Shown one piece after another: positions 1 through 63,962 of a stretch of DNA of 64,000 nt. The stretch's first letter is position 1. Every line of letters starts with the position of its first letter. Location: the NCBI GenBank assembly GCA_947446855.1, contig CANFIH010000003.1, positions 1 through 64,000 of the forward strand. The letters are read 5' to 3'. The notes under the pieces were generated by a model. That model saw only the letters and a program-made list of their open reading frames with translations. It had not been told where the DNA came from and searched no databases. The translations under genes were made by a program, and so were the position numbers. Origin of the DNA: Burkholderiales bacterium. Lineage in GTDB: Bacteria; Pseudomonadota; Gammaproteobacteria; Burkholderiales; Burkholderiaceae_C.

Positions 1-636
1 GCCGTATGGGCGCAGGGTGACCTGGTGGCCCGTGGCACGCTGCTGATTCTGGTGCTGATGAGCATGGCCAGCTGGTACGTGATTGTGTCCAAGTACATTG
101 AGCAGTCGCGCGTGAACAAGCAGTCACGTGCCGTGGGTGACGACTTCTGGAGTGGTGCCTCGATTCGCCAGAGCGCCGACAAACTCGAGGCCACCAGCCC
201 CTACCGCTTCATCACCGACAAGGGTTTGGAGAGTGCCAGCAAGCACGATGGCATGCTGGGTGCGATTGACTTCAATACCTGGGTCACCATGAGTATCCAA
301 CGTGCCATGACCAACGTACAAAGCCGTTTGCAGGAAGGCCTGGCCCTGCTGGCTACTGTCGGTTCCACCGCGCCTTTTGTCGGCCTGTTTGGCACGGTAT
401 GGGGCATTTACAACGCACTGGTCAGCATTGGCATGTCGGGCCAGGCCAGCATCGACAAAGTGGCAGGACCCGTGGGCGAGTCGCTCATCATGACGGCCAT
501 CGGTCTGGCGGTGGCGGTGCCCGCGGTGCTGGGCTACAACTGGCTGGTCCGCCGCAACAAGCTGGCCATGGAGGATGTGCATGCCTTCGGCAACGACCTG
601 CATGCGGTGTTGCTGGCTACGGCCGGCAAGTCCTAA
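1..636 (+). CDS. exbB: ExbB/TolQ/MotA-family proton channel protein (5' end truncated by window edge)
   Basis: Frame is open to base 1 (AVWAQGDLVARGTLLILVLMSMASWYVI...); ExbB core TVGSTAPFVGLFGTVWGIYNAL...GESLIMTAIGLAVAVPAVLGYNW; followed by two exbD genes and tonB. Confidence 0.93.
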   Translation, partial: AVWAQGDLVARGTLLILVLMSMASWYVIVSKYIEQSRVNKQSRAVGDDFWSGASIRQSADKLEATSPYRFITDKGLESASKHDGMLGAIDFNTWVTMSIQRAMTNVQSRLQEGLALLATVGSTAPFVGLFGTVWGIYNALVSIGMSGQASIDKVAGPVGESLIMTAIGLAVAVPAVLGYNWLVRRNKLAMEDVHAFGNDLHAVLLATAGKS

Positions 637-672
637 GCTCCACCGCAAGCGCTACGCTGAAGTGTTCTGCAT

Positions 673-1101
673 ATGGCAATGAACCTGGGCTCCGACGAGG
701 GCGAAGACACAGTCATGAGCGCCATCAACACCACACCGCTGGTGGATGTGATGCTGGTGCTGCTGATTATTTTTCTGATCACCATTCCGGCAGTTACCAC
801 TTCGGTCAAGCTGAGCCTGCCCAAGCAACGCGTGGAAGTGCGTGAGACCAAACCCGAGAACATCATCATCTCGGTCGACAAGGCAGGCCATACCTTTTGG
901 TATGACACGCAAGTCGCCGGCCGTGATGAGCTGGTCAATCGTTTGAAAAAAATATCCAGCATGCAGCCGCAACCCGAAGTGCAGATTCGTGGTGACAGCG
1001 AGGCGCGCTACGACAGCGTCGGCCGCATCATGTATGCCTGCCAGCTTGCCGGCATTGCCAAAGTAACTTTTATCACGGAGCCTCCCGCCCTGGGCGGATG
1101 A
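673..1101 (+). CDS. exbD: ExbD/TolR family biopolymer transport protein (first copy)
   Basis: MSAINTTPLVDVMLVLLIIFLITIPAV: ExbD TM with conserved Asp. Confidence 0.93.
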   Translation: MAMNLGSDEGEDTVMSAINTTPLVDVMLVLLIIFLITIPAVTTSVKLSLPKQRVEVRETKPENIIISVDKAGHTFWYDTQVAGRDELVNRLKKISSMQPQPEVQIRGDSEARYDSVGRIMYACQLAGIAKVTFITEPPALGG

Positions 1102-1532
1102 CACGCATGGCGATGAGTTCCCCTATGGGCCAGTCTGATGAAATGGACGTCATCATGGACATCAACACCACGCCGTTGATTGACGTGATGCTGGTGCTGC
1201 TGGTGATGATGATCATCACCATCCCGGTTCAGTTGCATGCGGTCAAGCTTGAGCTGCCGGTGGGTCGACCACCCGTCAGCCAGGTCAAGCCCGAGGTGAT
1301 ACAAATCGACATCGATGCCAAGAGTGGTGTGCACTGGCAGGGACAGACCATTGCCTTGGAGCAGCTTGAAGACAATATGCGCCAAAGCGCGCTGGCAGCC
1401 CCGCAGCCGGAAGTGCATTTGCGCACCGACAAGGATGCGAGCTATGCCGTGTTTGCCAACGTGCTGGCCAGTTCACGGCGCATCGGTTTGAACCGCATTG
1501 CCGTAGTTGGCAGCGAACAGTTTGTGCAATAA
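1098..1532 (+). CDS. exbD: ExbD/TolR family biopolymer transport protein (second copy)
   Basis: MDINTTPLIDVMLVLLVMMIITIPVQ; overlaps the previous gene by 4 nt. Confidence 0.92.
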   Translation: MTRMAMSSPMGQSDEMDVIMDINTTPLIDVMLVLLVMMIITIPVQLHAVKLELPVGRPPVSQVKPEVIQIDIDAKSGVHWQGQTIALEQLEDNMRQSALAAPQPEVHLRTDKDASYAVFANVLASSRRIGLNRIAVVGSEQFVQ

Positions 1533-2177
1533 ATGATGGCCCTGGATTACCGCACTGCGGACCCCTCGCGCCGCTACCGTGGCATTGTCATTGCGCTTGC
1601 CATACACGTGCTGCTGGCCTGGCTGCTGATTTCGGGCACGGCGCGCAAGGGCCTAGAGCTACTCAACAAGCCCTTGCAAGCCGTGGTGATTCAGGATGTG
1701 GTGGTTGCGCCACCACCACCACCACCGCGCAAGATGGTGGCGCCACCCAAGGCGCAGACGGTTCCAACCCAACCCCCACCTTTTATACCGGTGGCCGAAG
1801 TGCCCGTGGCAGCGCCCACCACCTTCGCCGTAGAGGCCACACCGGTCTTGCATGAAGCACCGCCTCCCGCTCCCGCACCGGTAATGGTCGCTGCTGCGCC
1901 TCCCGCACCGGCGCCTGCAGCCAAGCTGGACATGGACATTGTGTGCCCCACCCAGGTACCACCGGAAATGCCACGCCGTGCCCTGATCGATGGCGCGCAA
2001 GGATTGGTTAAGGCCCAGGTCCGGATTGCTGATGGCATGGTGCGCGAAGTTACCTTTCTATCGGGCCCCCGCGTCTTTTATGCAGCCGTGCGCACGGCCA
2101 TGCTGCAATACAAATGCACCCATCAGGGCAGCGAAGTGGTGGCCACGCAGGACTTCAACTTCAAGCTGCAGCCCTGA
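1533..2177 (+). CDS. tonB: TonB-like energy transducer, Pro-rich linker and C-terminal TonB domain
   Basis: N-terminal TM, PPPPPPRKM/APPPAPAPV-rich linker, C-terminal P.EMPRRALIDGAQGLVKAQVRI; directly after exbD. Confidence 0.85.
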   Translation: MMALDYRTADPSRRYRGIVIALAIHVLLAWLLISGTARKGLELLNKPLQAVVIQDVVVAPPPPPPRKMVAPPKAQTVPTQPPPFIPVAEVPVAAPTTFAVEATPVLHEAPPPAPAPVMVAAAPPAPAPAAKLDMDIVCPTQVPPEMPRRALIDGAQGLVKAQVRIADGMVREVTFLSGPRVFYAAVRTAMLQYKCTHQGSEVVATQDFNFKLQP

Positions 2178-59125: not shown

Positions 59126-59278
59126 TCTGCAGGCCCTGGAGTGGTCCCCGGATCCGCACGCAGCGGCTGTGGATGGGTCTGACACAATACGGTGGTACGG
59201 GTAAACGGATCGCGGGGTATTGAGATGCAGCGATCCCGACCCATGTTCCAATCCACAAAAAACATTCTCTCCAGGGCG

Positions 59279-59479
59279 ATGACGAAAATCAACAAATGCC
59301 ACCGATGTGGCGCAACGAGTTACAAACCGGTGATCAAGCGCGATGAGAACGGCACCATGATGCCCTCCGGCGAACATCAGTGCGTGGGCTGCAAGTTGAT
59401 CTTCACGGACATCGATGCCTGGCGGATCGGGCCTGTGGAGTTGGAGCTAACCCAAACCCAAGAGCAAGACGGGCGATAG
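59279..59479 (+). CDS. Small zinc-ribbon-like protein
   Basis: MTKINKCHRCGATSYKPVIKRDENGTMMPSGEHQCVGCKLIFTDIDAWRIG: CxxC...CxxC. Confidence 0.6.
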   Translation: MTKINKCHRCGATSYKPVIKRDENGTMMPSGEHQCVGCKLIFTDIDAWRIGPVELELTQTQEQDGR

Positions 59480-59720: not shown

Positions 59721-60485
59721 ATGACGCGAGCTCCGACGCGTACCCACTTCCATAGTTCCAGACTTGCTCGCGTACTCACCGATCTGGCTGTCGTCGACGC
59801 GGCTGAGGCGGCGACTGCGTTTGCCGAAAGGCTGGGCCTGTGGGTGAATTACACGGATGCCATCGCCCTGTATGCGGTGCACAACACCAGCGCGCCGGAC
59901 ACCCGCTCCGGGGCACAAGCGGCGGCGTCCCGCTCCATGGAGGATGCGTTTGCGCGTACACGGACCAGCCTGGAGCGCGCCATCCTGCGCAGCGGCACGC
60001 CCTTGCGGGGGCAAATCGGCATTGAGCTACCGATGCCGCAGGCAGACATGCCAAGCGAACTCAACAGCCTGTATGAACCCTACCGCCGCTACTACCTGGC
60101 ACACCAGCGCGAGATGGAATTGCAGCTAGGCTCCTTGCGCGCCAGCGTGCGTGGCGAGTTGGTAGATGCCTCCCCGGCGCTGCAGCAATTGGGCGCGCTG
60201 GACGAAGTACTTGAAGGTATCCTCAGTGAACGCGAAGCCAAACTGTTGGCGACCCTGCCCCTGTTGCTGAAAAAGCGTTTTGCCCATTGGTACCAGTGGC
60301 ATCAACACGCCCTGGCCGAGACGCAGCAAACCGACAACCCCCTGCAGTGGATGCAGCCGCAGGCCTGGCTGGCACGCTTTTGCCAGGAAGTGCAAACCGT
60401 GCTGCTGGCCGAACTGGACCTGCGCCTGCAGCCTGCGCTCGGGCTGCTTGAAGCCCTGCACAAAGAGAAAGAAAAACAACGATGA
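59721..60485 (+). CDS. DUF3348 family protein
   Basis: First gene of the DUF3348-DUF802-OmpA-DUF2894 run; FHSSRLARVLTDLAVVDAAEAATAFAERLGLWVNYTDAIALYAVHN; MPSELNSLYEPYRRYYLAHQREMELQLGSLR. Confidence 0.8.
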   Translation: MTRAPTRTHFHSSRLARVLTDLAVVDAAEAATAFAERLGLWVNYTDAIALYAVHNTSAPDTRSGAQAAASRSMEDAFARTRTSLERAILRSGTPLRGQIGIELPMPQADMPSELNSLYEPYRRYYLAHQREMELQLGSLRASVRGELVDASPALQQLGALDEVLEGILSEREAKLLATLPLLLKKRFAHWYQWHQHALAETQQTDNPLQWMQPQAWLARFCQEVQTVLLAELDLRLQPALGLLEALHKEKEKQR

Positions 60486-62650
60486 ACCGACATTTTTTTA
60501 CCGCAAGTTTTGCCCTGGGCGCCCTGGCGCTGGCCTGGGTGGCCGCCGGTTTTTTCGGCACCAATGCCCTGGCTTTGGTGATGACGCTGCTGATTGCGGC
60601 AGTTTATGGTTTTGGCACGGTTGAACTGCGTGCCTTTCGCCAGGCCAGCGCCGCATTGGCCGCCGCGCTGGAGGCGATTCCCGATGGCCTGAGCGATCTG
60701 GGCGCTTGGCTCAATGGCGTGCCCGCATCGCTGCGCAACCCGGTGCGCATGCGTATCGAAGGCGAGCGCGTCGGCCTGCCAGGCCCGTCCCTCACACCGT
60801 ACCTGGTGGGCCTGCTCGTGATGCTGGGCATGCTGGGCACCTTTCTGGGCATGGTGGTCACGCTCAAGGGCGCCGTTTTCGCCCTGGAAGGCACCTCCGA
60901 TCTCGCCGCCATCCGGACTGCATTTGCCACGCCCATCAAGGGCTTGGGCCTGGCCTTCGGCACCTCGGTCGCCGGCGTGGCTTCCTCCGCCATGCTGGGC
61001 CTGATGTCGGCCCTGAGCCGGCGCGAAAGAATGCAGGCGGCCCAGCTGTTGGACAGCCAGATCGCCGGCCCCTTGCGCGGTTTTTCGCTCACCCACCAGC
61101 GCCAGGAAACCTTCAAAGCCCTGCAGCAGCAGTCCCAGGCCCTGCCGCTGGTGGCCGAAAAGCTGCAGGCCATGATGCTGCAAATGGAACGCATGAACCT
61201 GCAGATGCAAGAACGCCAGCTCAGCAACCAGGAGAGCTTTCACAGCCATACCCAAAGCGTGTACACCGACCTGGCGCGCGCGGTGGACCAGTCGCTGCGC
61301 GATAGCCTGTCGCAAAGTGCACATATCGCCGGCGAAAGCATCAAGCCGCTGGTGCAAGCCGCCATGACCGGCATCGCTGCAGACGCGCGGCAGATGCATG
61401 AACGCATGGTCGCGGCCACGCAGGCACAGCTCGAAGGCCTGTCCACGCGTCTGGATGCCAGTGCCTCGGCGGTGGCAGAGCAATGGAGGGCCGCACTCAG
61501 CAGCCACGCACTGGCCGGCGCCACAATGGTCACCGGCATGGGCCAATCGCTGGAGTCCTTCAACGCCAGTTTCGAACAACGCGCCCACGCGCTGCTGCTG
61601 GCGGTGAAGGACAGCTACGCCACCCTGCAGGCCAATCAGGCGAGTGGTGACAACCAGCGCCTGCAGGCCTGGCGCAGCACACTGGAACACATGGCCGCAG
61701 GCCTGCAGAGCGAATGGCAGCACAGCAGCGCACAGACTCTGGCGCAGCAGCAGCACATCTGCAGCACCCTGACCCTGACCGCACAGCAGGTTTCCGACAG
61801 TGCACAGACCAGCGCCAACAGCACCTTGGGCGAGATCACCAGGCTCATGGCCAGCGCCGAAGAACTGGTGCGCGCCCGCATCGCCACCGAAGCCGAGTGG
61901 ACCGCACAGCATGGCGAGCGCATGGCGCAACTCAGTGCCATGCTGCGCACCGAACTCGGTGCCCTGCGCGCAGATGAGGCCCTGCGCGGCCAAGCGGCCG
62001 TGGACCGACTGGGTGAACTGCAAACCGCGCTCACCAGCCATTTGACAACGCTGGGCACCGCGCTCGAAGACCCGATCAGCCGCCTGATACAAACCGCCTC
62101 CGAAGCCCCGCGTGCTGCCGCCGAAGTGATCGGCCAATTGCGCCATCAGGTCTCCAACAGTGTGGCGCGCGACAACGAGTTGCTGGAAGAACGCAGCCGC
62201 ATCCTGGAAACACTCAACTCGCTGCTGGCCGGCATCAACCATGCGTCCGAAGAACAGCGCGCGGTGATCGATGCGCTGGTGTCGTCCTCCGCCTTGGCGC
62301 TGCAACAGGCCGGTGGTCAGTTTGCCGACAAGGTGGACGCCGAGGCCACCAAGCTCGCCGATATTGCAGCCCATGTCACCAGCAGCTCCGTGGAAGTGGC
62401 GGCCCTGGGCGATACCTTCGGCTTTGCCGTGCGCTCCTTCAATGAAGCCAACGAAAAGCTGATTGCCAACCTGCAGCGCATCGAAGGCGCGATGGACAAG
62501 TCCATGGCCCGCAGTGACGACCAACTGGCCTACTACGTGGCCCAGGCGCGCGAGGTGATTGACCTCAGCATCATGTCGCAAAAGGAAATCGTGGAAGAGC
62601 TGCGCCAGCTTTCCAGCAAACAGGCCGTGCCGGCCGAACAGGCTGCGTGA
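60482..62650 (+). CDS. DUF802 protein: MotA/ExbB-like membrane core with ~500-aa helical cytoplasmic tail
   Basis: LVMLGMLGTFLGMVVTLKGAVFALEGTSDLAAIRTAFATPIKGLGLAFGTSVAGVASSAMLGLMSALSR; Gln/Ala/Glu-rich helical tail. Confidence 0.85.
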   Translation: MNRHFFTASFALGALALAWVAAGFFGTNALALVMTLLIAAVYGFGTVELRAFRQASAALAAALEAIPDGLSDLGAWLNGVPASLRNPVRMRIEGERVGLPGPSLTPYLVGLLVMLGMLGTFLGMVVTLKGAVFALEGTSDLAAIRTAFATPIKGLGLAFGTSVAGVASSAMLGLMSALSRRERMQAAQLLDSQIAGPLRGFSLTHQRQETFKALQQQSQALPLVAEKLQAMMLQMERMNLQMQERQLSNQESFHSHTQSVYTDLARAVDQSLRDSLSQSAHIAGESIKPLVQAAMTGIAADARQMHERMVAATQAQLEGLSTRLDASASAVAEQWRAALSSHALAGATMVTGMGQSLESFNASFEQRAHALLLAVKDSYATLQANQASGDNQRLQAWRSTLEHMAAGLQSEWQHSSAQTLAQQQHICSTLTLTAQQVSDSAQTSANSTLGEITRLMASAEELVRARIATEAEWTAQHGERMAQLSAMLRTELGALRADEALRGQAAVDRLGELQTALTSHLTTLGTALEDPISRLIQTASEAPRAAAEVIGQLRHQVSNSVARDNELLEERSRILETLNSLLAGINHASEEQRAVIDALVSSSALALQQAGGQFADKVDAEATKLADIAAHVTSSSVEVAALGDTFGFAVRSFNEANEKLIANLQRIEGAMDKSMARSDDQLAYYVAQAREVIDLSIMSQKEIVEELRQLSSKQAVPAEQAA

Positions 62651-63291
62651 TGGAAGACGCAGACTCCGGCCTGGAGCAGACCGCGCCGGTCTGGGCCGTG
62701 TTTGGCGATTTGATGTCGGGCCTGTTGGGCGCCTTTGTGCTGCTGCTGGTGGGTGTGCTGGTGGTGCAGTTGCAGCTGACCACCAACCTGGAAGACGAGG
62801 TGAAAAAGCGCCAGGTCGAAGAGCAGCGCCGCATCAGCCTGGAAAAGGCCTTGGCGATTCCCTTGGCCAGCGGGCGCATCACCCTGAACAACGGGCGCAT
62901 CGGCATCAGCGGGCGCTTGCTGTTCTCGCTCAATTCCGACCAGTTGCAGCCCGAAGGCCGCAAGCTGCTCACCAGCCTGGTCACGCCACTGCGCGCCTAC
63001 CTGGGTGCGCGGGACGAGTTGCTGATGATCAGCGGCTTTACCGATGACCACTCCATCCGCGCCAGCAACAGCCAGTTTGCTGACAACTGGGAGCTGTCGG
63101 CCCAACGTGCCCTGACGGTCACGCGCGCCCTGATTGAGGAGGGCATGCCCTCCAGCCTGGTGTTTGCTGCAGCCTTTGGTTCCGAGCAGCCCATCACGCC
63201 CAATGTGGATGAACAGGCGCGTGCGCAAAACCGGCGCGTGGAAATGGCCCCCGTGCCCAAGGCCAGCAATGCCAAGCCCGCCCCGCCATGA
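62650..63291 (+). CDS. MotB-like OmpA-domain protein
   Basis: N-terminal TM with Asp: VWAVFGDLMSGLLGAFVLLLVGVLVVQLQL; C-terminal OmpA-like domain LLMISGFTDDHS...NWELSAQRALTVTRALIEEGMP...NVDEQARAQNRRVEM. Confidence 0.87.
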   Translation: MEDADSGLEQTAPVWAVFGDLMSGLLGAFVLLLVGVLVVQLQLTTNLEDEVKKRQVEEQRRISLEKALAIPLASGRITLNNGRIGISGRLLFSLNSDQLQPEGRKLLTSLVTPLRAYLGARDELLMISGFTDDHSIRASNSQFADNWELSAQRALTVTRALIEEGMPSSLVFAAAFGSEQPITPNVDEQARAQNRRVEMAPVPKASNAKPAPP

Positions 63292-63962
63292 GCCCGTTGC
63301 AGTGCCCTGCGCCTGAGGCTGCGTTGCGGGCTGAGCCGCTGGATTGCGCTGCAGCGCTGGCCTGGTTGCGCCAGTCCGGCGCAGAGCGGTTCGATCCGGT
63401 GCAACTCCATTACCTCGAAGCGCTGAGCCTGCGTGCCCGGGCACAGCCGGGCAGTGTCCAGCGCATTTTGGATGGCAAGTTGGCGCAGGCGCTGGCCGAC
63501 TTTGCAGCGCGCATGGCGCAGACGCACAGCGGCGCCAGCGCCCAGACCGTGCCACAAGCGGCGCCGCGTGAAACCCTGGGCGAGTTGGTGCGCTCGCTCG
63601 CGCAGCACGCAGCGCAAGAAGGCGATGCCAGCCCGGCGGATGCCGTAGGCGCGCGCACCGAACTCAAGTCGGTGCGCCACTTCAGAAACACGTGGTCCAA
63701 ACTCAGCGCCCACAAACAACTCAGCAAGGCGCTGGACCTGGCCCCCAAAAATGCCGGACCCATCAATTCGCACATGCTGGTGCTGCGCTCGCTGGCCCTG
63801 ATGCGCGACATCGCGCCCGACTACCTCAATCGCTTCATCTCCTATGCAGACACTTTGCTCTGCCTGGAGCACAGCGACAAGGCAAAAACTGCCCCTGCCA
63901 AGCCTGGCGCAGAGGGCGATGCCGGCAAGCCAGCCAAGCCGCGACGACCCCGCGCACGCTGA
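63288..63962 (+). CDS. DUF2894 family protein
   Basis: Last gene of the run; VRHFRNTWSKLSAHKQLSKALDLAPKNAGPINSHMLVLRSLALMRDIAPDYLNRFISYADTLLCLEHS. Confidence 0.8.
   Translation: MSPLQCPAPEAALRAEPLDCAAALAWLRQSGAERFDPVQLHYLEALSLRARAQPGSVQRILDGKLAQALADFAARMAQTHSGASAQTVPQAAPRETLGELVRSLAQHAAQEGDASPADAVGARTELKSVRHFRNTWSKLSAHKQLSKALDLAPKNAGPINSHMLVLRSLALMRDIAPDYLNRFISYADTLLCLEHSDKAKTAPAKPGAEGDAGKPAKPRRPRAR

What the first reader, a model, noticed from the sequence alone, without database searches (positions are those of the whole stretch)
59721..63962. Translationally coupled DUF3348-DUF802-OmpA-DUF2894 operon: a candidate undescribed MotAB/ZorAB-like energised complex
Seen: four genes overlap in series by 4, 1 and 4 nt. 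The second protein carries a MotA/TolQ/ExbB-type pore core (GMLGTFLGMVVTL...PIKGLGLAFGTSVAGVASSAML) followed by roughly 500 residues of helical tail. The third has a single TM with a buried Asp (FGDLMSGLLGAFVLLLVG), like MotB/ZorB, plus a C-terminal OmpA-like peptidoglycan-binding region. Known: MotAB, TolQR, ExbBD and ZorAB all couple ion flow to work through this pair, and ZorA has a long cytoplasmic tail. Inference: this is a fifth-type stator with its own cytosolic partners (DUF3348, DUF2894). No flagellar, Tol or Zorya effector (ZorC/D/E) genes are nearby in this window. The function could be envelope mechanics, defence, or cell-division signalling.
Basis: partly seen in the sequence, partly recalled or inferred. 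Interest (0 to 1): 0.82.

Follow-up and report, generated by a model that had tools for sequence, protein, structure and literature searches.

The report
Zorya type III anti-phage operon
The four overlapping genes are real, but they are not an undescribed machine: they are a complete copy of Zorya type III, a bacterial anti-phage defence system named in 2021 that has an ion-driven membrane motor at its core.

Summary
In detail: four tightly overlapping genes encode DUF3348, a MotA/ExbB-like protein with a ~517-residue cytoplasmic tail, a one-TM protein with a membrane Asp and an OmpA domain, and DUF2894. The interpretation "undescribed fifth-type stator" is wrong. All four proteins match the PADLOC Zorya type III models overwhelmingly (E 2e-71, 2e-266, 7e-111, 4e-64). 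Payne et al. 2021 named this exact gene set and showed that one copy protects E. coli against phages. The missing ZorC/D/E are markers of types I and II only. Extra work adds anatomy and ecology. The four-gene order was unchanged in all 125 loci not cut by a contig end. The ZorB Asp was invariant (59/59). ZorA length varied from 554 to 1074 aa. Distribution is patchy, and the chromosomal site moves even between close relatives. Neighbours are mostly housekeeping genes, with few defence genes and no shared fifth gene. DUF3348 and DUF2894 are predicted all-helical with no solved fold match, so how type III stops a phage remains unknown. Its native role rests on little: a published CRISPRi screen in Burkholderia saw no effect of predicted defence systems on one phage. 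Verdict: an ordinary copy of a known system.

The parts
59721..60485 (+). DUF3348 protein (ZorG in PADLOC-DB labels; 'ZorF' in the text of Payne 2021 and of the 2025 paper), 254 aa, no TM
   Evidence: AF2 all-helical, pLDDT 85
60482..62650 (+). zorA type III, 722 aa: two N-terminal hydrophobic peaks, MotA/ExbB-like TM3-TM4 core, long tail containing DUF802
   Evidence: ZorA3 1.7e-266; core profile hits ZorA I structure 8VVN, 7e-6
60803..60859 (+). ZorA TM3 (aa 108-126), carries T120
   Evidence: hydropathy, conservation
60950..61006 (+). ZorA TM4 (aa 157-175), with invariant T161/S162
   Evidence: hydropathy, conservation
61097..62647 (+). ZorA cytoplasmic tail (aa 206-722), 517 residues with 5 prolines, presumed helical
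   Evidence: length differs between orthologues
62647..63291 (+). zorB type III, 214 aa (GTG) or 213 aa from ATG 62650: one TM then OmpA peptidoglycan-binding domain
   Evidence: NF006547 2.3e-109; ZorB3 6.6e-111
62707..62709 (+). codon of ZorB Asp21, the membrane Asp (equivalent position to D24/D21 of ZorB I/II)
   Evidence: D in 59/59 orthologues; role from PMC11890865
62923..63234 (+). OmpA/peptidoglycan-binding domain of ZorB
   Evidence: PF00691 2.9e-16; MotB/Pal-like solved relatives
63288..63962 (+). DUF2894 protein (ZorF in PADLOC-DB labels), 224 aa, no TM, basic C-terminus
   Evidence: 3.9e-64; net charge of last 30 residues, median +5 in 59 orthologues

Best explanation
This is a complete Zorya type III anti-phage defence operon in a Rhodoferax-like betaproteobacterium (Comamonadaceae). 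ZorA and ZorB form an inner-membrane, ion-driven complex, by homology ZorA5:ZorB2. The OmpA domain of ZorB binds peptidoglycan, and the ZorB Asp in the ZorA Thr/Ser ring gates ion flow. When infection disturbs the envelope, ions flow, ZorA turns or rearranges, and its long helical tail passes the signal into the cytoplasm. There DUF3348 and DUF2894 act in place of ZorC/D/E, as adaptor or effector, possibly on nucleic acid through the basic tail of DUF2894. Shown here: family membership, gene order, and conservation of the Asp and the core. Shown in the literature: phage protection by one type III system in E. coli, and the 5:2 structure and Asp requirement for types I/II. Inferred: stoichiometry in type III, the trigger, the role of the tail, and the function of both DUFs.
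For: All four genes match PADLOC Zorya III models. Payne 2021 (PMC8565338) defines type III as the zor pair flanked by DUF3348 and DUF2894 genes, and shows reduced plaquing in E. coli for the Stenotrophomonas nitritireducens system. The ZorA core profile's only significant PDB hit is ZorA I (8VVN, E 7e-6). The Asp is invariant 59/59; OmpA-domain residues and ZorA T161/S162 are invariant. The four-gene order is invariant. Distribution is patchy and the location moves between relatives. The weak correlation of Zor with RpoB distances (Mantel rho 0.33, p 0.015, 25 genomes) fits a defence system that is gained and lost.
Against: In Betaproteobacteria the flanks are mostly housekeeping genes, with few PADLOC hits, so no defence-island signal was seen. 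In B. cenocepacia K56-2, which was predicted to carry Zorya III, no guide against predicted defence genes changed fitness with phage Bcep176 (PMC12584637). The type III defence activity I found in print is one heterologous, inducible test. No nuclease or known effector domain was found in the two partner proteins.
Confidence: 0.82

Rival explanations
1. It is Zorya type III by descent, but its main native role is physiological (envelope or peptidoglycan surveillance, or chromosome maintenance), and phage protection in E. coli is a by-product of over-expression.
For: Flanks are mostly housekeeping genes, with few defence genes; the plasmid records listed with a match are large replicons (0.37-2.6 Mb) and the phage hits cover only the generic OmpA domain; one Rhodoferax-like clade keeps it directly behind gyrB; no native defence effect in a published CRISPRi screen.
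Against: Patchy even within a genus (22 of 61 genomes over the cut-off) and family (55 of 201); location moves; two divergent Zor clades in one genus; direct phage protection reported.
Confidence: 0.13
2. It is a flagellar stator (MotAB) or Tol/Exb paralogue.
For: Shared MotA/ExbB-type core and a MotB-like OmpA domain.
Against: No Pfam MotA_ExbB match in the window protein, and only weak ones in 3 of 20 orthologues; no MotB plug or TolR/ExbD domain; long ZorA-type tail; invariant linkage to DUF3348 and DUF2894; best specific models are Zorya III.
Confidence: 0.02
3. One reading: an undescribed, fifth type of energised complex.
For: DUF3348 and DUF2894 have no known fold or function.
Against: Exact gene set named and tested in 2021 and covered again in 2025.
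Confidence: 0.01

Closest known systems
Zorya type III (ZorA, ZorB, DUF3348, DUF2894; Payne et al. 2021, PMC8565338)
   Same: All four genes, architecture, and model-level similarity
   Different: Only the host and the site (next to pstCAB-phoU-phoBR here); no feature outside the type was found
Zorya types I and II (PDB 8VVN, 8VVI; PMC11890865)
   Same: ZorA core with tail, ZorB Asp and peptidoglycan-binding domain
   Different: No ZorC/ZorD or ZorE; core similarity only remote (E 7e-6)
MotAB / PomAB flagellar stators
   Same: Ion-channel core type, Asp in one TM, OmpA domain in the B subunit
   Different: Long A-subunit tail, dedicated DUF partners, no MotB plug family match, no flagellar genes beside it
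TolQR / ExbBD
   Same: MotA/TolQ/ExbB-type core
   Different: The B subunit has an OmpA domain, not a TolR/ExbD domain

Membership tests
Zorya type III | zorA: MotA/ExbB-like core with long cytoplasmic tail | tested here: met
   ZorA3 model E 1.7e-266; core and tail
Zorya type III | zorB: one TM with Asp plus OmpA domain | tested here: met
   ZorB3 E 6.6e-111; Asp 59/59; PF00691
Zorya type III | zorAB flanked by DUF3348 and DUF2894 genes | tested here: met
Zorya type III | protects against phage | not testable with these tools
   shown for another member only (PMC8565338)
Zorya type III | ZorA5:ZorB2 assembly (shown for types I and II) | not testable with these tools
   no multimer prediction available; inferred from 8VVN/8VVI
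Zorya types I / II | zorC and zorD, or zorE, beside zorAB | tested here: not met
   flanks are phoBR and a small ORF upstream and a GGDEF gene downstream; no PADLOC ZorC/D/E hit among the four proteins
MotAB flagellar stator | Pfam MotA_ExbB and MotB_plug matches, flagellar context | tested here: not met
   no flagellar genes adjacent
TolQR / ExbBD | B subunit with ExbD/TolR domain | tested here: not met
   OmpA domain instead

The most novel reading that the evidence does not exclude
Zorya type III in Betaproteobacteria is not primarily a defence-island anti-phage system but a solitary chromosomal envelope-sensing motor with a native physiological role, whose helical partners DUF3348 and DUF2894 form a new kind of cytoplasmic output without a nuclease.
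Probability: 0.12. Interest if true: 0.6.

Novelty: already known. Interest (0 to 1): 0.2.

Why it matters
As a finding it is a routine copy of a described system. What is worth keeping is narrower. I found no catalytic domain in type III's two partner proteins and no fold match for them, and its loci do not sit among defence genes in this sample. How, and whether, type III defends its natural hosts is therefore still open and easy to test.

Tried and rejected
The first flank gene calls (greedy longest ORF) include spurious antisense ORFs, as the window itself shows. I redid them with a GC3 criterion that recovers the expected genes at the right end of the window, and the conclusion did not change. 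The first RpoB comparison picked wrong frames and was replaced; two genomes were dropped, and binning noise in metagenome-assembled genomes, including the window's own (6.5% contamination), limits it. A search meant as a Zorya I control for flank content gave too few true loci to use. PHROGs gave only matches to the OmpA domain. Promoter and terminator scans did not clearly exceed shuffles. A single-sequence ZorA search of the PDB found nothing meaningful.

Full report
Observation. The four ORFs are present at the stated place, overlapping by 4, 4 (or 1, if the ATG at 62650 is the start) and 4 nt. Pfam gives DUF3348, DUF802, OmpA and DUF2894. The second protein has two N-terminal hydrophobic peaks and two further ones at 108-126 and 157-175, then about 517 residues with only five prolines. 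The third has one TM beginning just after Asp21, then an OmpA domain. The first and fourth have no TM.

Identity. PADLOC-DB assigns all four to Zorya type III with E-values from 4e-64 to 2e-266. Payne et al. 2021 (PMC8565338) named Zorya type III for the zor pair flanked by DUF3348 and DUF2894 genes, counted 6,401 cases, and showed that the Stenotrophomonas nitritireducens system reduces plaquing in E. coli. A 2025 paper lists Zorya III again and solves ZorAB of types I and II as 5:2 complexes in which the ZorB Asp, the peptidoglycan-binding domain and the ZorA tail are all needed for defence (PMC11890865). A profile of the ZorA III core hits the ZorA I structure 8VVN (E 7e-6) and no other chain with a significant score. 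The finding is therefore a known system, not a fifth type.

Conservation. I collected 60 loci from related genomes and 80 named loci from Rhodoferax, other Comamonadaceae, Oxalobacteraceae, Rhodocyclales and others. In all 125 loci not cut by a contig end the four genes occur in the same order. The ZorB Asp is present in 59 of 59 proteins. ZorA T161 and S162 and many OmpA-domain residues are invariant. ZorA length ranges from 554 to 1074 aa; the core aligns well and the tail does not, so the variation lies mostly in the tail.

Partners. AlphaFold2 models are all-helical: DUF3348 with pLDDT 85 and pTM 0.81, DUF2894 with pLDDT 75 and pTM 0.41. Neither has a significant fold match in the PDB or a convincing sequence match there. 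The C-terminal 30 residues of DUF2894 are basic (median net charge +5), which could mean nucleic-acid binding; this is inference.

Distribution and context. DUF3348 passes its cut-off in 22 of 61 genomes of the genus, 55 of 201 of the family, 8 of 387 of the class and 12 of 299 of the phylum sample. The window's site beside phoR is not shared by the other genus members examined, including a close relative that carries the operon elsewhere. Zor distances correlate only weakly with RpoB distances (rho 0.33, p 0.015), and one genus holds two divergent Zor clades. In one of these the operon sits just behind gyrB. No fifth gene is shared by most loci. Among flanking genes only a handful match defence models, several of them probably generic enzymes, and the common families are housekeeping. 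In plasmid records it appears in 36 of 72,556; the listed ones are 0.37-2.6 Mb replicons. These facts fit a system gained and lost over time, but not one concentrated in defence islands. I had no matched control for types I and II.

Mechanism. Most likely: an envelope-anchored, ion-driven ZorAB complex whose tail signals to DUF3348 and DUF2894. The ion-motor part is well supported by homology; the output step is not known. The native defence role has thin support: a CRISPRi screen in B. cenocepacia K56-2, where Zorya III was predicted, saw no effect of predicted defence genes on phage Bcep176, although its authors give several possible reasons (PMC12584637).

Verdict. Observation confirmed; novelty claim rejected; interest low.

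Noticed in passing
L066-L072 (same-genus genomes): In one clade the Zorya III operon lies a few tens of bases behind gyrB, in the dnaA-dnaN-gyrB region, and is kept there across about seven genomes.
   Followed up: partly
window 25-2177: ExbB/TolQ-like, ExbD-like and TonB-like genes in series (read by eye from translations); unrelated to the finding but another MotA-family motor in the same window.
   Followed up: no
window 59721-60485 and 63288-63962: Names are swapped in use: PADLOC-DB labels DUF3348 as ZorG and DUF2894 as ZorF, whereas the texts of PMC8565338 and PMC11890865 say the reverse; PMC8565338 also prints 'zorBC' where zorAB seems meant.
   Followed up: yes
L002 7149-9647 (-), downstream of the operon: Convergent gene for a GGDEF protein with a C-terminal hemerythrin-like stretch (by eye); not conserved next to the operon elsewhere.
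   Followed up: partly
window 59192-59479 (+): Small 95-aa protein with a CxxC-type zinc-ribbon look between phoR and the operon; not found beside phoR or Zor genes in relatives examined.
   Followed up: partly
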